Of a DNA stretch of 64,000 nt, positions 47,759 to 57,664 are shown piece by piece. Numbering within the stretch: the stretch's first letter is position 1; each line of letters opens with the position of its first letter. The notes under the pieces were generated by a model. The model did not search any database. It was given only the letters and a program-made list of their open reading frames with translations, and was not told the DNA's origin. The stretch spans positions 1,054,001 to 1,118,000 of the forward strand of contig NZ_CP044972.1 of the NCBI RefSeq assembly GCF_010104355.1, given 5' to 3'. The position numbers and the translations under genes are program-made. Source of the stretch: Hydrogenophaga sp. PBL-H3. Lineage in GTDB: Bacteria; Pseudomonadota; Gammaproteobacteria; Burkholderiales; Burkholderiaceae_C.

Positions 47759-48607
47759 ATGTTCAATCTGCTGGTGTCCGGGAACGGGTGGGAGCCGAAC
47801 AGGCGGGCGTTTGGTCGCGGCCGGACGCTTGAGTACACAGAAGCCGACATAGTCACCCGGTTCATGCCGAACGGTGCAATGGACACTACTGCGGTTGCTC
47901 AACTACCTGCGCTATTCGTTGCCGAGACAAGCTACGACAACAGCCAAGGATCGGCGCACATCGGAACGCTAACGCGGATTAGAAGCACTGGCCCCGGGTT
48001 TGACTACCAGCTTGAATACACGTATGACCCAGACATTCCGCCGATTCCGAACGCAAAGCTCGCGGAGCTTCGGCACGAGCTTGGCATCGAAGAGTTCGAA
48101 TTCTCTCGAACCCACTGGGCGATCAAAGACATTGACCTCTTCAGGGTTCTATTGCGTGCAGGGCACGGTCAGCGCCTGAAACCGAAGGTTTTTGATCTGA
48201 CCGACGATCCTGTCGACGAGAGCCTCGTTGCCGTGATGATGCCCTTCGACGCTCGATTTAACCCGGTTTATGCCGCTCTGCAAGGCGCCGCAACAGGGCT
48301 GCGAATGACGTGCCAACGCGGGGACGACATTTGGGACCACGACCACATCATTCAGGACGTGGTGTCATTGATTGGCAAGGCCAAGGTGGTGATCTGCGAC
48401 CTCACTGGCCGAAATCCCAACGTCTTTTACGAGACGGGGATCGCACACACGCTCGGCCGTGACGTAATCTTAATCGCTCAGTCTGCGACTGACGTCCCCT
48501 TCGACGTAGCAGCGATTCGGCACATTCGGTATCTTCCGAACGCCGAAGGATATGCGACCCTCGCGACCCAAGTGGCGGCGCGTCTTGAAACGCTTCGGAG
48601 CCGCTAA
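47759..48607 (+). CDS. protein with nucleoside-deoxyribosyltransferase/TIR-like domain
   Basis: A 282-aa protein. Residues 1-150 form an uncharacterised N-terminal region. Residues 155-280 form a Rossmann-like domain with V-A-V-M-M-P-F-D (159-164), Q-R-G-D-D-I (187-191) and D-L-T-G-R-N-P-N-V-F-Y-E-T-G-I-A-H (214-230). That last motif marks a family related to nucleoside 2-deoxyribosyltransferases and TIR-like domains; the Glu could be catalytic. Such domains occur in NAD- or nucleotide-targeting defence proteins, but cleavage activity here is inference. Confidence 0.65.
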   Translation: MFNLLVSGNGWEPNRRAFGRGRTLEYTEADIVTRFMPNGAMDTTAVAQLPALFVAETSYDNSQGSAHIGTLTRIRSTGPGFDYQLEYTYDPDIPPIPNAKLAELRHELGIEEFEFSRTHWAIKDIDLFRVLLRAGHGQRLKPKVFDLTDDPVDESLVAVMMPFDARFNPVYAALQGAATGLRMTCQRGDDIWDHDHIIQDVVSLIGKAKVVICDLTGRNPNVFYETGIAHTLGRDVILIAQSATDVPFDVAAIRHIRYLPNAEGYATLATQVAARLETLRSR

Positions 48608-48912
48608 ACGTTTGACAGAGCTGACTAGGCCGCAGGCTTTGGCGTAGCGACCATGCTGACCGAATGTTCCGCCAGGACATTGGTAGCGAGTCGAACACCG
48701 CTGTGACGAGATGGATGCGATCAGGTCGGTGAAGACGAGCACCGTAAGGACCAAGATGTCGAGAATGACCAGTGATACCACCCACCGACGGTTGCTGGAA
48801 TGAGCGGTTCGTCCTTGAAGCGGCGACGTTCGCTCCTTCGCGCTGCCGGCACCTTTGGCCAATGCTTGGACTGCTACGATTTCCCAGTTGAATCGCATGT
48901 TTAAGGAAAGAT
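48608..48912. other. intergenic region
   Basis: No gene on either strand that I can support; minus-strand open frames here read as shadows. The bases just before 48913 contain an AAGGAAAG ribosome-binding sequence for the next gene. Confidence 0.4.
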
Positions 48913-50487
48913 ATGGCAGCAAAGCAAAGGGAGACCGTCAACCTCGACGCACTGATCCCGAGAGATGACGTAGAGGCGAAGAAGCCCAAGTCTGGGAAGG
49001 GCGTCATTCAGGTGACCGAGCTGGAGTTGGGCCGTCACTTCTACGGGCTGCTTCGCAAACCTTTGTTTCAGCGCGAGACGAACGACTGGGGAGTTGACAA
49101 CGTAGTTTCGTTGGTCCGCAGCTTCCGCAACGGCCACCTGATTCCGGCGGTCATTCTGTGGTCTGCGGATGGTTCCACGTTTGTCATTGATGGTGCTCAC
49201 CGGTTGAGCGTCTTCGTCGCGTGGGTCAACGACGACTACGGTGACGGGTCACTGTCTCAAGCCTTTTTCAAGCACCAAATTCCGAAGTCTCAGCGAGAAG
49301 CAGCACACAAATGTCGCGTACAAATTAAAGCCGAGGGCCTGGAATATGCAGAGTTGCAGAAACTGACCAAGTTGCCGACCCGAACCCCTGAGCAACTCGA
49401 ATGGAGTACGAACATCGCTCAGCCTGTTGAAACACAGTGGGTTGTCGGCGATGCGGATGTTGCGCTGCAGTCGTTCCTCGATATTAACCAGCGGTCAGTC
49501 GAGATTGATCCCACAGAGCGCTACATGATCGAGGAGCGCAAAGCACCAAACGTGGTGGCTGCCCGAGCCTTGGTAAGCGCCGGACGTGGCCATGCCTATT
49601 GGGGGGCTTTCGAGCCGCAGTATGTTGAGGAGATTGAGCGATATGCAACGCGCATCTACGACGCAATCTTCGAGCCAGAAAGCGCACAGCCACATACGCA
49701 TGCTGAACTACAACCTGCGGGTATGGCACAGACGGCTAATGGCCTACGTATGGCGCTCGAGTTGGTTAACATCGCCACGGGGATGAAGGGAGGGTCAAAA
49801 AACATACCTCCTGACCACGACGGCAGCCAAACGTCACGAGTCCTTGCGAAGGTATGGGGTGTAGTCAAGTACGTCGCTGGAGATGAACCGGCCTCCCTAA
49901 GCTTGCATCCGGCCATCTACTTTTGGGGGACCACCGGAAACCATCGCCCTAGCATGTTCCTGGCAGTGGTGTCATTTGTTCAAGACCTGATCGCGTCGAA
50001 CGAACTGGCGAAGTTCACCCTACACAGGGCAGACTTGGAGGAAATGCTGATCGGCCGAGGCAATCTCGGTCAACAGATCTTGACGCGGTATGGCGGCTGG
50101 AAGCGCAGTCTCGAACCGATCAAGGCACTTCTGCGAAAAATTCTGGATGGCCTGGACGCAGGCAAGACAGAGGCAGAAATACTTGGCGAATTTTCGTCTG
50201 CGTTGCCGGAGGCTTTAAGGGACGCCACAGAGCGTCCTGACGCTTGGAAGGAGACGCGCAGCGCCGCGCGAATAAAAGCGAGTCTGGCTACTGCACCGCG
50301 GTGCGGAATTTGCAAGGCGCGACTAGTTCTCGCTCACGCGAGTGATGACCACATAGAGCGCCGCTCCGACGGCGGGCATTCGGGTCCGGGTAATGCACAA
50401 CTAACCCACCACTACTGCAACCACGGGTTTAAGGAGCACTTTGCGCAGATCGGAAGGCCACTTCCAACGATCGCAAGCCCTGCCTAA
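48913..50487 (+). CDS. DUF262/ParB-like protein with C-terminal HNH nuclease
   Basis: A 524-aa protein. The N-terminal part (about 40-110) shows R-K-P-L-F-Q-R-E-T-N-D-W and V-I-D-G-A-H-R-L-S-V, similar to the ParB-like core of DUF262 proteins. The middle is helical. The C-terminus (about 462-512) has C-G-I-C, D-D-H-I-E-R-R-S-D-G-G-H and C-N-H-G-F, an HNH nuclease zinc and metal site. The layout recalls GmrSD-type type IV restriction factors, where DUF262 couples NTP binding to an HNH nuclease. Role in restricting modified or invading DNA is plausible. Confidence 0.65.
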   Translation: MAAKQRETVNLDALIPRDDVEAKKPKSGKGVIQVTELELGRHFYGLLRKPLFQRETNDWGVDNVVSLVRSFRNGHLIPAVILWSADGSTFVIDGAHRLSVFVAWVNDDYGDGSLSQAFFKHQIPKSQREAAHKCRVQIKAEGLEYAELQKLTKLPTRTPEQLEWSTNIAQPVETQWVVGDADVALQSFLDINQRSVEIDPTERYMIEERKAPNVVAARALVSAGRGHAYWGAFEPQYVEEIERYATRIYDAIFEPESAQPHTHAELQPAGMAQTANGLRMALELVNIATGMKGGSKNIPPDHDGSQTSRVLAKVWGVVKYVAGDEPASLSLHPAIYFWGTTGNHRPSMFLAVVSFVQDLIASNELAKFTLHRADLEEMLIGRGNLGQQILTRYGGWKRSLEPIKALLRKILDGLDAGKTEAEILGEFSSALPEALRDATERPDAWKETRSAARIKASLATAPRCGICKARLVLAHASDDHIERRSDGGHSGPGNAQLTHHYCNHGFKEHFAQIGRPLPTIASPA

Positions 50488-50861
50488 AGAGTCCCGGGTG
50501 TCATAGGTACGGGGCAAGCGAAAATGCTAGTCATTTCGCGTCAGCACCCGGGACTTCGGATTGATCGGGTGACGCCATCGACATCTCAGAGTAGAAGGAA
50601 ATCTGACTGCTTTAATCCCGCCGTTTAGCTCTCCACGACGGCAAGCGCGAGGAACGGCTCCGACCCTGGATGTCGAGGCTCGCACTGGCGTTGACTCCCC
50701 GACGTCGCCTTGTGCCACGACAAAGTCGCGGCGCTCTTCTCCGGAATGGTCAGAAAAGTTCAGGATTCGGAAGACCAGGCCGCGTCTCCCGCTGACATCT
50801 TCCCGGCTTCTTCTACGCTTCAATGTCATTGCGGGGATACGTTACGCTTGCTGTTTGCCAC
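50488..50861. other. intergenic region between convergent genes
   Basis: A 374-base gap between the HNH protein gene and the 3' end of the Argonaute operon. No credible gene, clear terminator or repeat was seen. Confidence 0.4.
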
Positions 50862-51929
50862 TCAGGTTTCGGTCTTGCCACCGTCTTTGAACACCAGCAG
50901 CTCTGGCGCACGACCCGTGACCAGGTCGCGGTTGGAATGTCCACGCCAGAAGTCGAAGAGAGAATGCTCCGTGCAGGCCTCGATGTGCAGGAGCGACTTG
51001 GTCTCCTCCTCATCGAACGGTGCAATCAGCCCGACCTCGGTGTCTGCATCGCCCAGCACCATGAACTCAAAGCGCTTCCGGTCCGCCTCAGGCACAGTGA
51101 GCAAGCCGTCCGCGAATGGCGCGACCTTCTCTGGCTGCAGCCCCACCCGGTAGATGTCGGGGCTGCAGGCCTCGAAGTACACCGCCTGACTCCGCGGCGC
51201 ATGTCGATAGATGTGCTGCGGCGCCACCAAGCTCGCCGGTATCGAGACAGGAACGGTCGCTGTTCGGTCCGAGGTTGACTGGCGATAGACCTTGAGCGGG
51301 ATGGCCTCTCTCCTCGACACCGCGTTTGTCCGGAGGAGACCGATATGACCGGCGGACGCCATGGCAATCCTGACCAGGTCCGCCTCCGACGCAATCCGCT
51401 GAAGGCTGGTGAAGTACGCATACGCGACGTTCTTGAGTTCCCGCGTGCCCTGCACGTTCCAGTAGGATCCGCGAAAGTGGCCGGAAGCCCGTATCGCAGC
51501 CGCTGCTTGGTCGGTGGTGTGATGAAAGAGGTCAAGCCGAATGTCGCCGGTCGCGTCCATCGAGCATGTCCCGTCGGCCGTCTGCGCAAGGTCGGCATGG
51601 CCGGATATCAAGCAGCGGTATACCTGCGATGAGTCGCTTAGCGATGCGACGAACCCGGCAGAAGTGAACCCAACGCTTACCTCGGGACCGCCGCTCACCT
51701 CGAGTTGAATGTCAACTGCCGCATAGTCGTCCCAGAAGGACAGCAATGGAGCGTAGAAGTACTTAGGCTGAAACCAGCGCATCCCGCCAAGGTCCACCGC
51801 CAACAGATCGGGGACGAGCAGTGACGCGCCCTCCGCATGCACAAGCTTTAGCTTGATGAAGCCATCAACGACATTCGGACGCATCTCACGCCAGTGCTCG
51901 AGGTAGGCAGACTCGGTTAGGTCATCCAA
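50862..51929 (-). CDS. unknown 355-aa protein of the Argonaute operon
   Basis: The start is a TTG at 51929 with AAGGA six bases upstream. I recognise no named domain. The protein is soluble, without signal peptide or helix. A conserved-looking block at 134-176 (L-F-H-H-T-T-D-Q-A, A-I-R-A-S-G, G-S-Y-W-N-V-Q-G-T, A-Y-F-T-S-L) weakly recalls the opening of ADP-ribosyltransferase-like toxins such as HYD1 or DarT. This is a guess. A late segment reads V-L-G-D-A-D-T-E-V-G-L-I-A-P-F-D-E-E-E-T. It lies 79 bases behind the nuclease gene, same strand, after a 7-bp tandem repeat. Confidence 0.6.
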   Translation of the reverse strand: MDDLTESAYLEHWREMRPNVVDGFIKLKLVHAEGASLLVPDLLAVDLGGMRWFQPKYFYAPLLSFWDDYAAVDIQLEVSGGPEVSVGFTSAGFVASLSDSSQVYRCLISGHADLAQTADGTCSMDATGDIRLDLFHHTTDQAAAAIRASGHFRGSYWNVQGTRELKNVAYAYFTSLQRIASEADLVRIAMASAGHIGLLRTNAVSRREAIPLKVYRQSTSDRTATVPVSIPASLVAPQHIYRHAPRSQAVYFEACSPDIYRVGLQPEKVAPFADGLLTVPEADRKRFEFMVLGDADTEVGLIAPFDEEETKSLLHIEACTEHSLFDFWRGHSNRDLVTGRAPELLVFKDGGKTET

Positions 51930-51952
51930 GGTAGGTCCTTTAATGCAGGGTT

Positions 51953-51980
51953 GCTTACTGCTTACTGCTTACTGCTTACT
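51953..51980. repeat. tandem repeat, four copies of a 7-bp unit
   Basis: Four perfect copies of GCTTACT lie in the 78-base gap between the nuclease stop and the TTG start of the 355-aa gene, about 24-51 bases upstream of that start. Such simple repeats can change copy number by slippage and so alter spacing or an mRNA leader. Confidence 0.9.
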
Positions 51981-52007
51981 GCGTAGTGCCGCTGCCGCTG
52001 CTCATGC

Positions 52008-53291
52008 CTAACTTTTGAGGGACTTCTTCGAAGCAGGCTTGGCAGGGCCCTTCGCCCTGCCGGTAGGCTTTGTCTCCGAGGCTACGGTCAACTGCTCAAC
52101 TGGGAGGTGAGACGGGCGACTGGCGATGACAACGCCCTCGATGCCAGGTGCGCGACGAAGGGCGCGGGCAGTAGTCTCGTGAACTTGGACGCTGGCCGAA
52201 TGGTCGTAGATAAATACGACGATTCGGCTGTACCGCTCTGGCGTCTGAAGGTAGGGAACGATATCCTCCAACACCTCTTTCTCGATGGCCTTGAAGTCTG
52301 CAGCCGACCGCGAGTACTTCGCTTCGACCAAGAGACCGAGACTTGGGATACCGAAGTCTGCGCGGTAGGTCGAGTGCCCAAACTTCGGCAGCGTGTCTTC
52401 ATCTTCAAGGTCGAGAAATACTGGCCGAAGCATCAGGTACAGGATGTCTTGGACCTCGCGCTCGCTCAGCAACGGCCAGCGTATGGGAGTCTTCAACGCC
52501 GATGGGTCCCAGCGCCAGCGCTTCATGCTCGACTCGAACTGCTCCAGCATATGCACCACGGTCGCAGGGGAGCGCAGCAGGTCGCTGGTGGCCTCGGAGA
52601 TTGCGCATTGCACGGCGTGCCAAATAAGAGCGGCATCGTGCGCGGTACGGTTGCCTATGTCCTCTCGCATCGCTTGCTCGACAAGGGCCTGTTTGAGCGC
52701 TTTTCGTTGTGCTGCTGGCCTCGCCTCCGCACTCGGGAGCGATAGCAGCCATTCTTGTGCAGCCAGTTCAGATGCACTACTGCCTTCGACATTGACGGAC
52801 GTGGGCATCGCCACCCCTGCAAGGACCCCCGCGTACACGACCAACGCATCCACCTTGCCGCTCGACGTCACTCGCAGCGCTTGAATGACGTCGCGGCACC
52901 AACTCAGGTAGTGCGGCTTACGCTCCTTGAAATGCTCCGCGGCGAGTATGAGTCCAACCAGCACCGGTGGGCTGTGCAGTGCCACGCTGCTGGCCGCCGC
53001 CGATGCATCTCGTCCTATGGCCCTCTTTAACCCGGTTTCGAGACTCGTCAGCATCGTCTCGTTCGAGCGCCGGGCAACGGTGAATGCCAGGGCCGCGACG
53101 CTCGGGAGGCTGCTCGGGTCATAGCTGCTTTCCAGCCAGACCGGGCCGCAGTCAACACTCCAGTCGAACCCAAGCCTTGGGTCGTCACCAAGCAGATGGC
53201 GAGCCAACAGGCCTTCGATGTTGCCTGCCACGTTGGCGGCTGAGATATCGGTTCTCAGCCTCTCAAGTACCGGTGCGATGAGGGCTTCCAT
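52008..53291 (-). CDS. Argonaute-associated PD-(D/E)XK nuclease
   Basis: A 427-aa protein translationally coupled to the Argonaute gene (TGATG at 53291). The N-terminal ~270 residues are helical and of unknown fold. The C-terminal part holds a restriction-endonuclease-like core: Asp312, then Glu323-Ala-Lys325 in R-A-D-F-G-I-P and L-L-V-E-A-K-Y. A strand with I-V-V-F-I-Y-D and a Lys/Ser-rich tail follow. In RsAgo-type long-B Argonaute systems the neighbour is a nuclease of this kind, thought to degrade DNA when the Argonaute detects an invader. Confidence 0.8.
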   Translation of the reverse strand: MEALIAPVLERLRTDISAANVAGNIEGLLARHLLGDDPRLGFDWSVDCGPVWLESSYDPSSLPSVAALAFTVARRSNETMLTSLETGLKRAIGRDASAAASSVALHSPPVLVGLILAAEHFKERKPHYLSWCRDVIQALRVTSSGKVDALVVYAGVLAGVAMPTSVNVEGSSASELAAQEWLLSLPSAEARPAAQRKALKQALVEQAMREDIGNRTAHDAALIWHAVQCAISEATSDLLRSPATVVHMLEQFESSMKRWRWDPSALKTPIRWPLLSEREVQDILYLMLRPVFLDLEDEDTLPKFGHSTYRADFGIPSLGLLVEAKYSRSAADFKAIEKEVLEDIVPYLQTPERYSRIVVFIYDHSASVQVHETTARALRRAPGIEGVVIASRPSHLPVEQLTVASETKPTGRAKGPAKPASKKSLKS

Positions 53292-55543
53292 CACAGGAAC
53301 CACCTGCTCTCCCTGAGCTTGGTGGTCAGGATGTCCGGATTGAAGTTCGGGACTTGGCGCAGGTTCCCAAGCAGGTCGACCACCATGTTGGGATAGGACA
53401 CCGACACCGGCTGGGTCGACGGGTTGAATGAGCGCCAGGACATGAACGTAAGGTCGAACACCTGTTTCGTCACATACGCGAGGTCCCTGAACGTGGAACT
53501 GGGATGGATGCTCACGAGGATAGGACTCGGACACCCTTGCAAGTCGGTTTTGAGCTGCTGTGGCCCCACCAAGGTCACCAGGGCTGCACGGGGGCCGAGG
53601 GGAACGATGACGCCGCGGTCGGGCACCTTGGCGCCCTTCAACCTCGACGACTGGTACCTCGCACCCTGCGCACCTTCATCGAACAGTTTCCAGTCGTGGT
53701 CACTGCTCACCTGGACGAAAGCAAACTCGACCTCAAACTCGTCAAGTTCAGAGATGAGGTCAGATACCGCAGCGGCCTCGGTCTCCTTGTACCGTTTGAA
53801 GGACTGGTGAAAGATGATTCGCAGCTTGTCGCCGCTTTGCCACCCGAACCTCCTTCGAAGCTCCGAGAGGGTCCCACGGAGCGACTCTAGTAAGCGAATC
53901 TTGTAATCCTCGGAGCTGGCCTCGGTGGTCGCGTTGCCGAGCAGATAGCTGCCGTCACCGCTGAAAACCGTCGTTATGCCGACGAGCCGCTCCCGTTCAG
54001 AAAGCCTGTCAAACCCGACTCGCGCGCTCCCGATGCCCACGATGATTTCGTGCACTAGCCGCTGCTGCACGGAGAGCGTCCAGGGTATGCCGCCTAGCTT
54101 GGCGTAGAGCGACAGCGCAAGATTGTTCAGCATGTATGGATTGAGCTTGTTGATGGTCTCCATCGTGATGGCCTGCACGGGCACCCCCTGGGACATCAAG
54201 GTCGCTTTGGCGGTGTAGTACGGGCTTGCAGGGCCCAACAGCTTCTTGTCGCTCTCGGAAATGACGACAAGTGCCAAGTCCAGGTCTTGCTGCGCCGCTT
54301 CTAGTGAAGCAGCCTTATAGGCCGCCGCCCGGTCTCCAGCCAATCTGATGGTCGTCGGCGCGTAGGTCATGCGCCTCAGCCGGTACTTCCGAGGCATGCC
54401 CTGCGGAAAGGCGGACTCCTTCGGACCGTCTGATGGGACGCCGTCGCGAAGCTTTGCCGCTAGCTCCTCAACGCGCCCCTTGTTCTCTTCGGGGAACAGG
54501 ATGCCAATCTTTGGCTCCTTTCGTGAGAACGAGTCGGTGTCGAAGGGACCGTTGGTGTTCAGCTTGCCGTCGACTGGCCACGACACGGTGATGGTGCCGC
54601 CAGGCTTGAGGCTGCACTGTGGGGAACTGAGCCTTCTAAAATGACCCACCTGGTCGCCGTAGGGCACCTCAGTCAAGCCTCCCGCAAGTTTGACGGTCAT
54701 GCCGGCACAGCATGGGATATCGCCCTGCAGGTCCTTGAACGATCCCAGCAGCTGCTGAAGTCTCGCCAGCTGCTTCTCCGCGCCGGAGACCGCAAACAAC
54801 GTCGGGATGACTTGCCGAGAAACCATATCGTAGTCGCGGCCCAAGAGCGCCCGTCCGACTCGTTCGAAGTTCGCCAGGTTCGCCTCGACATGCAGCTGCT
54901 GCGCAGGTACATCCTGTTCGCGCTCGTCAACCAGCTTTGCGAGGCCCCCAACAATCTCCTGAACCCGACCAACCAAACGTCGGTTGAACATGGGCAGGAT
55001 GTACGGATTCTCGCGCTCTGCCTGCTTCATCACATAAAGGCCGCGGGGGTCCAGGCCTTGCGCTATGAGGTCATCCAACGACGGCTTGATGAGGAAACGG
55101 GCATTGAAGTTGACGAGGACGCCGTTTACAAACGAGCCGTCTTGTGGCGCCAGCGGCCGAATGTCGAATGAGTACTCAGGGTAGATAGCGAAGAAGCGCC
55201 CAGCGTCGCCCTTAAGCAGGTTCTCGTTGTCCCTTACGAAACTGACCGGTCGGACGCCTGAGATGCTCCTGTTCTGATTGTAGAAGCGGAGCAGCAGGCC
55301 GTTTCGTGCAAGCGCGTTCGCGACGGAGAAGTCGGTGCCTGTGTCGAAGAGGCTGCACGTTCCATCAGTCGGCGTGTTCTCCTCGTATGGGAAGAGAAGC
55401 ACGTCGTCCCCTTCGCGCAGCACGAAATGCGTTCGCGTCAGCTTCTCGCGAAGCGCACGAAGCTGCCCCTTGTCTACGTACCGAATTCGATAGCCCGTGA
55501 ACTGGGCGGAGGAAAACTCAATCGGGAGATGGTTCAGAAGCAT
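53291..55543 (-). CDS. long-B prokaryotic Argonaute (RsAgo-type, catalytically inactive)
   Basis: A 750-aa Argonaute. The MID domain shows the 5'-phosphate-binding Y-K-Q-K set (Y-Y-T-A-K, V-Q-A-I, Y-A-K-L-G-G-I-P-W). The PIWI domain shows V-G-I-T-T-V-F-S-G-D-G-S-Y-L-L-G-N and ends S-R-W-F-L, both nearly as in Rhodobacter sphaeroides Ago. The catalytic tetrad is lost: the first Asp position reads V-G-I-G-S, the H-R-D-G position reads F-H-Q-S-F, and the last Asp is absent near V-S-Y-P-N-M. It should bind guide and target without cutting. I chose the ATG at 55543; upstream codons in frame look non-coding. Confidence 0.9.
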   Translation of the reverse strand: MLLNHLPIEFSSAQFTGYRIRYVDKGQLRALREKLTRTHFVLREGDDVLLFPYEENTPTDGTCSLFDTGTDFSVANALARNGLLLRFYNQNRSISGVRPVSFVRDNENLLKGDAGRFFAIYPEYSFDIRPLAPQDGSFVNGVLVNFNARFLIKPSLDDLIAQGLDPRGLYVMKQAERENPYILPMFNRRLVGRVQEIVGGLAKLVDEREQDVPAQQLHVEANLANFERVGRALLGRDYDMVSRQVIPTLFAVSGAEKQLARLQQLLGSFKDLQGDIPCCAGMTVKLAGGLTEVPYGDQVGHFRRLSSPQCSLKPGGTITVSWPVDGKLNTNGPFDTDSFSRKEPKIGILFPEENKGRVEELAAKLRDGVPSDGPKESAFPQGMPRKYRLRRMTYAPTTIRLAGDRAAAYKAASLEAAQQDLDLALVVISESDKKLLGPASPYYTAKATLMSQGVPVQAITMETINKLNPYMLNNLALSLYAKLGGIPWTLSVQQRLVHEIIVGIGSARVGFDRLSERERLVGITTVFSGDGSYLLGNATTEASSEDYKIRLLESLRGTLSELRRRFGWQSGDKLRIIFHQSFKRYKETEAAAVSDLISELDEFEVEFAFVQVSSDHDWKLFDEGAQGARYQSSRLKGAKVPDRGVIVPLGPRAALVTLVGPQQLKTDLQGCPSPILVSIHPSSTFRDLAYVTKQVFDLTFMSWRSFNPSTQPVSVSYPNMVVDLLGNLRQVPNFNPDILTTKLRESRWFL

Positions 55544-56004
55544 GTTTCCGGTCCTGGGTTCAAAATCCGATTGGCTCTTTGACAGTCTGACCGGCCAGTC
55601 GTGCCTCGTCGTGGGCACAGAGGCCGTTGACTAAGCTGATAGCGTAGTCTTGACCTTGTCCGACCATTGGATTGCTCGCCAGAGTCTGCCCTTAGAAATG
55701 ACGCCACCAGCGACTCCCCATCGCGAGGCGCAAGCAGATAGATGAACTGGACGCGATCGCGGTCCCCGGCCTTCAGCTGAACGCAGTCTTCTGGCTTGAA
55801 CTCAGCCCCTAGTGGTCCGAAGCAGCGAATGCTCCTGAGAAAAATGCATTCGATGTGCACTGCGTCCTCCCTTGGTCCGTCAGGCTGTTCCTCCAGCCTC
55901 TGTTCCAGAATGTAACGCCAGTCCTTGTCGTCCCCTCGCCCTAAAGTTGAACGACCACTTGCGGGCGCGAAGTTCAGCAAAGTAAAGGACGGCTCGCGCT
56001 GCAC
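55534..56004 (-). CDS. possible first gene of the Argonaute operon, 156 aa
   Basis: A frame starting with GTG at 56004, with GGAGG six bases upstream, and ending 10 bases inside the Argonaute gene. Its first ~110 residues read like a protein (W-R-Y-I-L-E-Q-R-L-E-E-Q, H-I-E-C-I-F-L-R, V-Q-F-I-Y-L-L-A-P-R-D-G-E-S-L-V-A-S-F-L); the last ~40 are Arg/Cys-rich and less convincing. No family is recognised. It may be a real small partner, or a decayed gene. Confidence 0.4.
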   Translation of the reverse strand: MQREPSFTLLNFAPASGRSTLGRGDDKDWRYILEQRLEEQPDGPREDAVHIECIFLRSIRCFGPLGAEFKPEDCVQLKAGDRDRVQFIYLLAPRDGESLVASFLRADSGEQSNGRTRSRLRYQLSQRPLCPRRGTTGRSDCQRANRILNPGPETCF

Positions 56005-56139
56005 ACATGACCTCCGTTGTGTCGCTGAAAACTTCAGCCGCCTTGGCTCCTGCCCTTGACGTATCGGAAACACATGTTATCGATACAGGGACCCCCAGAT
56101 TTTCTGCAGCGTGCAGGGAAGGGGAGACACCCACCGTCA

Positions 56140-57435
56140 ATGCACTCTCACGAACACCCCTCCGATTCCATTGCCTCTCAAATCCACAGGCCCCCGTGCT
56201 GGCCCGAGCTTGCCGCAGGCGCCAGACGTTTCGCACAGCTGGGCCTCATGACCATCGAGACCCAGTGGCTGGCCAACTTCGCCAGCGCCTGCACCCGGCG
56301 CGCCTACGCCGCCGACGTGCGGGACTTTGCGGCGTTCTCGGGGTTGCAGACCCCGTCCGAGTTGCTGCAGGTCGCACGCTCCCATGTGCTGGCCTGGCGC
56401 CACCACCTGCAGGCCCAGGGCCTGTCGCCGAGCACGCAGCGGCGAAAGCTCGCAGCCCTGTCCTCGCTGCTGGAGCATCTGGTCGATGAGCAGCTCATCC
56501 CCACGAACCCGGCGCGCGGCGTGCGCAGGCCGCGCCTGGAGAGCCATGAGGGCAAGACCCCGGCGCTGTCGCTGGAGCAGGCGCAGGCCCTGCTGGAGGC
56601 GCCCGACGCGAACACGCTCAAAGGTCTGCGGGACCGTGCGATCCTGGCCGTCATGCTGCTGGGCGGCCTGCGCCGCGCGGAGGTGGTGGCCCTCAGGGTG
56701 CGGGATTGTGATGTGCAGCGAGCTGGCGTACCGCACCTGCGCGTGATGGGCAAGGGCGGCAAGACGCGCTTCATCGCGGTGGCGCCGCTGCTGCGTCAAC
56801 GGGTGCTGGACTACCTGGCCATGCGGGGCGCATCGTCCCATAGCGAGGCGCGCTTGTTCGTGCGGATGCAGGCTGGAGAGCGCAAGTCCGAGACTTCGCA
56901 CGATGGCGACGCTGCAAGACACTGCGGCGCAGAGGAGGGCAGGGGGGTGGGCCGGGGTGTGGGTGGTGGGGAAGTGGTCATGCGCCGGCGCACCACCAAG
57001 CCCACCCGCGCCCCGGCGGTGGGCCGTCCCGCGGGCGGCGCCCCAGGTCCTGCGAGGAGCGCTGAGGCGCAGGGGCAGCTTGTCCCGCGATGCAGCGGGC
57101 CGCGCTCTGACTCACCTGGCGCGGCCACAACCAACACAGCGGCACCTGGCACCAGCGCCTCGCACAAAACCACCGGGAGGCCTGCCGCGCTCACCGCCGG
57201 GGCGGTGGCCCAGCGCATCGTGCAGCCGTACCTGGCGCAGATCGGGGTGGTGGGTGAGCGGTTTTCTGCGCACGCGTTGCGGGTGACGGCTGCCACGCTG
57301 GCCTTGCGCGAACGCGCGGATCTCAACGAGGTCCGGCATTTCCTGGGGCACGCCTGCATCACGACCACCACCGCATATGACCGGCGTTGGAGCGATGCGG
57401 GTCGGCCCGTGGGCCTGGTGCTTCCTTTTGTCTGA
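56140..57435 (+). CDS. tyrosine recombinase with a long internal insertion
   Basis: A 431-aa recombinase with all catalytic residues: Arg178 (G-G-L-R-R-A-E-V), Lys208 (G-K-G-G-K-T-R), His378-x-x-Arg381 (H-A-L-R-V-T), His404 (F-L-G-H-A) and Tyr413 (T-T-A-Y-D-R). A core-binding domain lies at about 40-130. Unusual is a stretch of about 100 residues (about 245-345) rich in Gly, Ala, Pro, Arg and Thr between the Lys and H-x-x-R boxes. The start is unsure (ATG at 56140; an upstream in-frame alternative is less likely). It abuts the divergent Argonaute operon and may have mobilised it. Confidence 0.8.
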   Translation: MHSHEHPSDSIASQIHRPPCWPELAAGARRFAQLGLMTIETQWLANFASACTRRAYAADVRDFAAFSGLQTPSELLQVARSHVLAWRHHLQAQGLSPSTQRRKLAALSSLLEHLVDEQLIPTNPARGVRRPRLESHEGKTPALSLEQAQALLEAPDANTLKGLRDRAILAVMLLGGLRRAEVVALRVRDCDVQRAGVPHLRVMGKGGKTRFIAVAPLLRQRVLDYLAMRGASSHSEARLFVRMQAGERKSETSHDGDAARHCGAEEGRGVGRGVGGGEVVMRRRTTKPTRAPAVGRPAGGAPGPARSAEAQGQLVPRCSGPRSDSPGAATTNTAAPGTSASHKTTGRPAALTAGAVAQRIVQPYLAQIGVVGERFSAHALRVTAATLALRERADLNEVRHFLGHACITTTTAYDRRWSDAGRPVGLVLPFV

Positions 57436-57664
57436 GGCATCCGAACGTGAGTTGCAGAAGGTTGAGCGCCGACCGTTTGCTGGCGGCGTTGGTCAGAGTT
57501 GGCTGGTGTGCGGTCATGCACCAACGCTGCTGCAACTGACGCCCGGCCGACGTCCCTGTCGATGGGCCGTATCACCGTCAGGACCAGTGCACTCGCAAGA
57601 AGCGCAATCTCAGGGCTTGACTTGGAAGCGATTCGTGAGAGCTTGTTGGCAAGGAGATCACCAC

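What the first reader, a model, noticed from the sequence alone, without database searches (positions are those of the whole stretch)
50862..56004. Four-gene operon around an inactive RsAgo-type Argonaute and a PD-(D/E)XK nuclease
The sequence directly shows a long Argonaute with intact Y-K-Q-K guide pocket but a lost catalytic tetrad, coupled by TGATG to a nuclease with D312/E323-x-K325. It shows a third same-strand gene with its own AAGGA site and a possible fourth gene overlapping the Argonaute start. Known RsAgo-like (long-B) systems pair the Argonaute with a nuclease; the two extra proteins would be an extension. The surrounding HNH and deoxyribosyltransferase-like genes fit a defence island.
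Basis: partly seen in the sequence, partly recalled or inferred. Interest (0 to 1): 0.88.

Follow-up and report, generated by a model that had tools for sequence, protein, structure and literature searches.

The report
Argonaute–nuclease defence pair, not four genes
The locus holds a known kind of bacterial defence pair, a target-sensing Argonaute and a DNA-cutting partner, while the two proposed extra parts look like an unrelated neighbouring gene and a broken leftover of another defence system.

Summary
The core observation is right. A 750-aa RsAgo-type Argonaute, read as catalytically dead (53291-55543, -), is joined by TGATG to a PD-(D/E)XK nuclease (52008-53291, -). The pair is a BPAN system (long-B pAgo plus bAgaN), a published abortive-infection system.

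The four-gene extension is not supported. The 355-aa gene (50862-51929, -) is real by homology, with a TTG start behind AAGGA. The 6 plasmid records and 2 other family genomes found with this nuclease gave no match to the 355-aa protein. DNA similarity to Polaromonas covers just this one gene. It looks like a single-gene cassette that fell in behind the pair.

The "156-aa fourth gene" is a decayed internal fragment of gajA (Gabija): it matches GajA residues about 129-208 and lacks both ends; no gajB was found in the window.

Most novel residue: the 355-aa family has no significant match in Pfam, NCBIfam, PADLOC, PHROGs or PDB. Its invariant HHTT...YFT...YxE pattern recalls HYD1-type ADP-ribosyltransferases. 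That is a lead only: Pfam E = 0.27, AlphaFold failed, and a profile test was no better than shuffles.

The parts
53291..55543 (-). Long-B (RsAgo-type) Argonaute, 750 aa, ATG start at 55543; Y-K-Q-K guide pocket kept
   Evidence: PADLOC pAgo_II PDLC02379 6.5e-224; RsAgo chains 312 bits and EcAgo 308 bits; NCBIfam RsAgo model NF052569 371 bits, below its cut-off of 700; 66% identical to the G1128 Argonaute over its full length
52008..53291 (-). bAgaN-type nuclease, 427 aa, PD-(D/E)XK D312 / E323-x-K325; ATG overlaps the Argonaute stop (TGATG)
   Evidence: PADLOC Aga_Helical-REase PDLC02407 5.1e-159; Pfam DpnII-MboI 2.4e-33; PDB 23wq EcbAgaN 4.8e-20 over the C-terminal part
50862..51929 (-). 355-aa orphan gene (TTG start), a single-gene cassette of a rare unannotated family; not part of the Argonaute system on present evidence
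   Evidence: No significant match in Pfam, NCBIfam, PADLOC, PHROGs or PDB; 4 homologues, none with Argonaute or bAgaN in the DNA held
51936..51940 (-). AAGGA ribosome-binding-like site of the 355-aa gene
   Evidence: Read directly
51955..51982 (-). Tandem 7-bp repeat (GCAGTAA, four copies) in the 78-bp gap between the nuclease and the 355-aa gene; the exact three-copy string occurs only here in the genome
55637..55944 (-). Decayed internal fragment of gajA (Gabija); clear similarity at 55944-55687, and a further, chance-level match in another frame to 55637
48913..50487 (+). Neighbour: 524-aa GmrSD_N protein with an HNH-like C terminus, convergent with the 355-aa gene
   Evidence: Pfam GmrSD_N 4e-10, HNH 9.5e-4 below its cut-off
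47759..48607 (+). Neighbour: 282-aa TIR-like protein
   Evidence: PADLOC TIR effector 4.9e-12
56056..57435 (+). Neighbour: XerC-like tyrosine recombinase, matched in two separate stretches, divergent from the Argonaute
   Evidence: Pfam Phage_integrase 2.1e-17; NCBIfam XerC 145.8 bits, below its cut-off

Best explanation
Window 52008-55543 encodes a two-gene BPAN system. The dead Argonaute is expected to carry a small guide RNA and bind matching invader (plasmid-type) DNA; binding switches on the partnered nuclease, which degrades DNA indiscriminately and kills or arrests the cell, so that the invader is lost from the population. Shown here: gene order, overlap, family membership, guide-pocket residues, nuclease residues. 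Inferred from the E. coli relative: guide type, activation, collateral DNA cleavage. The 355-aa gene downstream is an independent single-gene island element that landed next to the pair; the frame upstream is a remnant of a lost Gabija gajA gene. The site is thus a turnover spot for defence genes, not a four-part machine.
For: Matches to pAgo_II and Aga_Helical-REase models over nearly their whole length, to the RsAgo and EcAgo structures and to EcbAgaN. The same Argonaute-then-nuclease order occurs in G1128 (66% and 57% identity) and, more distantly (31% and 38%), in G1208; the 6 plasmid records with the nuclease are all among the 11 with an Argonaute. Against four genes: no Argonaute or nuclease in 4 of 4 loci of 355-aa homologues; DNA similarity to the Polaromonas locus spans only 50862-51953, that is one gene plus 24 upstream bases; G1115 has the 355-aa homologue and no bAgaN match; G1128 and G1208 have bAgaN, while only G000 and G1115 of the 200 genomes matched the 355-aa profile (G1128 is printed there as a miss; G1208 is not printed, but its handle number falls inside that sample). 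Relic: tblastn of two GajA proteins (PADLOC GajA 2.3e-240 and 3.2e-222, each with GajB next to it) hits 55944-55687 at 5e-8 and 2e-7; 0 of 200 block shuffles of the stretch reach that score (47.8 bits; shuffle maximum 28.5).
Against: The 355-aa gene is on the same strand, 78 bp behind the nuclease, and no terminator-like site was found in 50300-56400, so co-transcription here is possible; Song et al. note that such long-B operons hold 2 or 3 genes (PMC10620215 passage). Only 4 homologues were found, and the genome-contig scan reaches close relatives only, so a rare or recent partnership in this lineage is not excluded. The Polaromonas contig ends 1.5 kb upstream of its gene, so an Argonaute further away there cannot be ruled out. 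No function was tested. bAgaN also gave 3 weak partial matches in other genomes of the order that I did not examine. Several plasmid pairs are broken (Alicycliphilus, the two Roseomonas).
Confidence: 0.88

Rival explanations
1. The 355-aa protein is a third BPAN component (second effector or regulator) recruited in this lineage, co-transcribed with the pair.
For: Same strand, 78-bp gap, own ribosome-binding-like site, no terminator-like site found; codon score (-0.03) and GC3 (0.75) like those of the Argonaute and nuclease (a blunt measure, since one antisense control scored -0.04); long-B operons are said to hold 2 or 3 genes (PMC10620215 passage).
Against: 0 of 4 homologous loci with Argonaute or bAgaN in the DNA held; none of the 11 Argonaute-bearing plasmid records is among the 2 that hold a homologue; the published E. 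coli system is described as Argonaute plus nuclease (PMC10620215, abstract and passages).
Confidence: 0.08
2. The 355-aa protein is a stand-alone ADP-ribosyltransferase-type defence or toxin gene (HYD1-like), using NAD+ to modify a target on infection.
For: Invariant H136-H137-T-T, S149-G150, Y172-F-T and E253 in 5 of 5 sequences, identities to the window protein down to 35%. Pfam Tox-ART-HYD1 is the only match of the Rhizobium homologue, residues 168-235, profile 1-71 of 97, over that motif (E 0.27). 3 of 4 outside homologues sit near restriction or methylation genes.
Against: E 0.27 is not significant; another member gives an unrelated Pfam model, XLF, at E 0.19, and the other three members give nothing. 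Profile alignment to one true HYD1 domain aligned the same motif but scored 17.6; 4 of 100 shuffles scored higher (best 20.0), and so did at least 4 of 150 decoy segments outside the family. AlphaFold failed twice (mean pLDDT 28 and 31). The H-Y-E reading is recalled, from no call.
Confidence: 0.35
3. The 156-aa frame is a real fourth gene.
For: Open frame with a possible GTG start that overlaps the Argonaute start.
Against: Lowest codon score of the frames tested, four antisense controls included; similarity to an internal GajA stretch lacking both ends; no gajB match in the window below E 0.28; the only other plasmid match was at E 0.3; no Pfam match and none better than E 0.08 in PADLOC or NCBIfam.
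Confidence: 0.03

Closest known systems
BPAN system of E. coli (EcAgo + EcbAgaN; PDB 23wq; PMC10620215)
   Same: Long-B Argonaute directly upstream of a PD-(D/E)XK nuclease; same D and E-x-K; Argonaute matches over nearly its full length
   Different: Nuclease N-terminal half not aligned by phmmer; whether the neighbours differ was not compared
RsAgo (PDB 5awh, 6d8a and others)
   Same: Residues 118-751 align at 312 bits; same guide pocket
   Different: N-terminal ~117 residues not aligned; NCBIfam RsAgo equivalog cut-off not reached (371 of 700 bits)
Gabija GajA (PADLOC PDLC00090)
   Same: 55944-55687 matches GajA residues about 129-208
   Different: A fragment only: no N terminus, no C-terminal part, no gajB found
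Tox-ART-HYD1 ADP-ribosyltransferases (PF15633)
   Same: The HHTT...YFT region of the 355-aa family lines up with the start of the profile in one member
   Different: Not significant (E 0.27); longer protein with an extra N-terminal region

Membership tests
BPAN (long-B pAgo + bAgaN) | Full-length RsAgo/EcAgo-type Argonaute | tested here: met
BPAN (long-B pAgo + bAgaN) | YK-type guide pocket, almost universal in long-B pAgos (PMC6299218 passages) | tested here: met
   Y442, K446, Q457, K482
BPAN (long-B pAgo + bAgaN) | Catalytic tetrad lost | tested here: inconclusive
   PIWI region aligns with RsAgo, which is inactive by recall; no active Argonaute was aligned here
BPAN (long-B pAgo + bAgaN) | bAgaN nuclease directly downstream of the Argonaute | tested here: met
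   TGATG overlap; PDLC02407 5.1e-159
BPAN (long-B pAgo + bAgaN) | Intact PD-(D/E)XK residues | tested here: met
   D312, E323-x-K325 aligned with EcbAgaN
BPAN (long-B pAgo + bAgaN) | Guide-directed activation and collateral DNA cleavage | not testable with these tools
   Needs biochemistry
Gabija | Intact gajA plus gajB | tested here: not met
   Only an internal gajA fragment; best gajB match in the window has E 0.28
HYD1-type ADP-ribosyltransferase (355-aa protein) | Significant match to PF15633 | tested here: not met
   E 0.27, 12.4 bits against a cut-off of 25, in the Rhizobium member only
HYD1-type ADP-ribosyltransferase (355-aa protein) | ART fold | tested here: inconclusive
   Both AlphaFold models failed
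Argonaute-associated gene (355-aa protein) | Homologues recur beside Argonautes | tested here: not met
   0 of 4 homologous loci; none of 11 plasmid records with an Argonaute

The most novel reading that the evidence does not exclude
The 355-aa gene founds an unannotated family of single-gene defence-island proteins with a divergent ADP-ribosyltransferase domain, spread between unrelated Proteobacteria near restriction-type systems and, once, behind a BPAN pair.
Probability: 0.3. Interest if true: 0.55.

Novelty: new member of a known kind. Interest (0 to 1): 0.3.

Why it matters
It gives a diverged chromosomal example of the BPAN abortive-infection pair and shows that its two apparent extra partners are most likely a passer-by and a fossil, a caution against reading defence islands as multi-gene machines from one locus. 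The 355-aa family is a small, testable candidate for a new defence enzyme.

Tried and rejected
Four-gene operon: rejected on neighbourhoods. Fourth gene: rejected as a gajA relic. The one weak hit for the 355-aa protein in the order sample (E 9.4e-4, 44 residues, L005) lies in a region covered by an integrase-like ORF and was judged chance. Viral contigs: no relative of the 355-aa family or of the nuclease. Phages: no match for the 355-aa protein, its Rhizobium homologue or the Argonaute. Structure prediction of the 355-aa protein, whole and residues 95-320, failed, so no fold search was run. Profile comparison with one HYD1 domain was not above shuffles or decoys; further HYD1 relatives were listed (9 records) but none was fetched, since several are clinical isolates. 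Flanks were compared with the same-genus genome G1221 to look for an empty site; only short scattered matches came back. Genome samples overlap, so their counts must not be added. On rereading the calls I lowered the ADP-ribosyltransferase rival from 0.40 to 0.35 and the novel case from 0.33 to 0.30, because of the XLF match at E 0.19 and the decoy scores.
Full report
What is there. On the minus strand the window reads, in order, a frame upstream of the Argonaute (55534-56073), the Argonaute (53291-55543), the nuclease (52008-53291) and a 355-aa gene (50862-51929). The window is G000 C1:1054001-1118000 of a 4.8-Mb genome in 3 contigs.

The pair. The Argonaute matches PADLOC pAgo_II over its full length (6.5e-224), RsAgo chains at 312 bits and EcAgo at 308 bits. 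It does not reach the NCBIfam RsAgo equivalog cut-off (371 of 700 bits), so it is RsAgo-like rather than a clear RsAgo orthologue. The guide pocket is Y442, K446, Q457, K482. That the PIWI site is dead follows from its alignment with RsAgo, from the statement that long-B pAgos are all catalytically inactive (PMC6299218, passages) and from recall that RsAgo is inactive; no active Argonaute was aligned. The nuclease matches Aga_Helical-REase (5.1e-159), DpnII-MboI (2.4e-33) and EcbAgaN of PDB 23wq (4.8e-20, C-terminal part); D312, E323 and K325 are in place. It is a BPAN system by name: Song et al. 2023 (PMC10620215; [quoted passage not shown]

The 355-aa gene. It is a real gene by homology: 5 sequences align, the other four with 76, 64, 43 and 35% identity to the window's. 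It is rare: 2 of 72,556 plasmid records; one relative, Polaromonas, in the genome-contig scan, which reaches close relatives only; 2 of 200 genomes of the family, one being the window's own; own only in 369 class and 398 phylum genomes; own plus one hit judged chance in 399 order genomes; none in phages or viral contigs. In the four outside loci (12.6 to 25 kb each) tblastn finds neither the Argonaute nor the nuclease at E 1e-3. Their neighbours are a GmrSD-type enzyme (PADLOC Orf5 3.8e-130) and a type I restriction subunit (G1115); Vsr and a cytosine methylase, with weak, sub-cutoff HNH matches either side (Rhizobium); an N-6 methylase and helicase (Sphingomonas); an integrase and a ParD antitoxin (Polaromonas). 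DNA similarity between window and Polaromonas runs from 50862 to 51953 and stops: the shared unit is one gene. From the other side, 6 plasmid records have the nuclease at E 1e-10, all among the 11 with an Argonaute, and none is among the 2 with the 355-aa protein; in the family sample of 130, bAgaN is in G000, G1128 and G1208 (G1208 partial, 93% complete), and the latter two have no 355-aa match. G1115 has no bAgaN match. What still speaks for a link is local: same strand, 78-bp gap, no terminator-like site found, and the remark that long-B operons hold 2 or 3 genes.

What the 355-aa protein may be. NCBIfam, PADLOC and PHROGs give nothing for the family; PDB gives two chance-level hits for the window protein (E 0.14 and 0.85) and none for a profile; Pfam gives nothing for the window protein and two weak models in the family: XLF at E 0.19 for the Polaromonas member and Tox-ART-HYD1 at E 0.27 for the Rhizobium member. 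Invariant residues include H136, H137, T138, T139, S149, G150, Y172, F173, T174 and E253. I recognise this, from memory, as like the H-Y-E layout of diphtheria-toxin/PARP-type ADP-ribosyltransferases, and the HYD1 match lies over the HHTT...YFT part. Against it: a true HYD1 domain (L029) aligned to the same motif by hhalign, but at 17.6, with 4 of 100 shuffles higher (best 20.0) and at least 4 of 150 decoys outside the family higher (best 25.5). It remains a lead.

The upstream frame. tblastn in plasmids gave two hits to 'AAA family ATPase' (E 3e-4 and 7e-4) and a third at E 0.3. The first two records carry Gabija: GajA 3.2e-222 and 2.3e-240, GajB 3.4e-190 and 2.3e-221 (regions). Searched back against the window, these GajA proteins hit 55944-55687 (33% over 86 residues, 2e-7; 50% over 48 residues, 5e-8), corresponding to GajA residues about 129-208; a second, overlapping match in another frame runs to 55637 (E 0.11 and 0.66, itself no better than chance). 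0 of 200 block shuffles reach the score. The codon score is the lowest of the frames tested, though the measure is blunt. This is a gene remnant: both ends are missing. Intact copies exist in other bacteria.

Mechanism and verdict. Most likely a functional two-gene abortive-infection system (0.88), in a stretch with TIR-like, GmrSD-like and former Gabija genes. A survey lists HNH-type nucleases among genes found in some pAgo operons (PMC6299218 passage); here the HNH-like gene is on the opposite strand and convergent. The Argonaute-nuclease pair is a new member of a known kind. Searches of the paper library for an Argonaute with an ADP-ribosyltransferase and defence islands (4 papers, listing and start of abstracts only) and for ADP-ribosyltransferases in phage defence (27 papers, 15 listed, listing and start of abstracts only) showed no paper whose title or opening lines describe this pairing; the CmdTAC mRNA ADP-ribosyltransferase defence (PMC11618068, listing and start of abstract only) shows that such an effector type exists in defence.

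Noticed in passing
window 51955-51982: Four tandem copies of a 7-bp unit (GCAGTAA) between the nuclease and the 355-aa gene; the exact three-copy string occurs only here in the genome, and a 13-base part of it is absent from the + strand of the four homologous loci.
   Followed up: partly
window 47759-50487: TIR-like 282-aa gene followed by a GmrSD_N/HNH-like 524-aa gene on the same strand, possibly a separate two-gene defence unit.
   Followed up: no
window 17358-46387: Copper and heavy-metal resistance genes: RND pump, CusB/CusF-like fusion, CusS-like kinase, multicopper oxidase, two P-type ATPases, cation efflux protein.
   Followed up: no
window 56056-57435: XerC-like recombinase matched in two stretches, with a GC-rich stretch (about 0.71 at 56500-57499) that looks like an insert between them.
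   Followed up: no
L025 4938-7670: In G1128 the gene directly downstream of the BPAN nuclease, same strand, is a candidate defence helicase (PADLOC PDC-S28, 2.1e-279, from residue 69; the ORF as listed overlaps the nuclease end).
   Followed up: partly
L010 7567-9254: Alicycliphilus plasmid pDP3 keeps a full-length nuclease ORF but only the last 145 residues of the Argonaute (78% identical to the window's), a broken BPAN pair; part of the nuclease gene is repeated elsewhere on the plasmid.
   Followed up: partly
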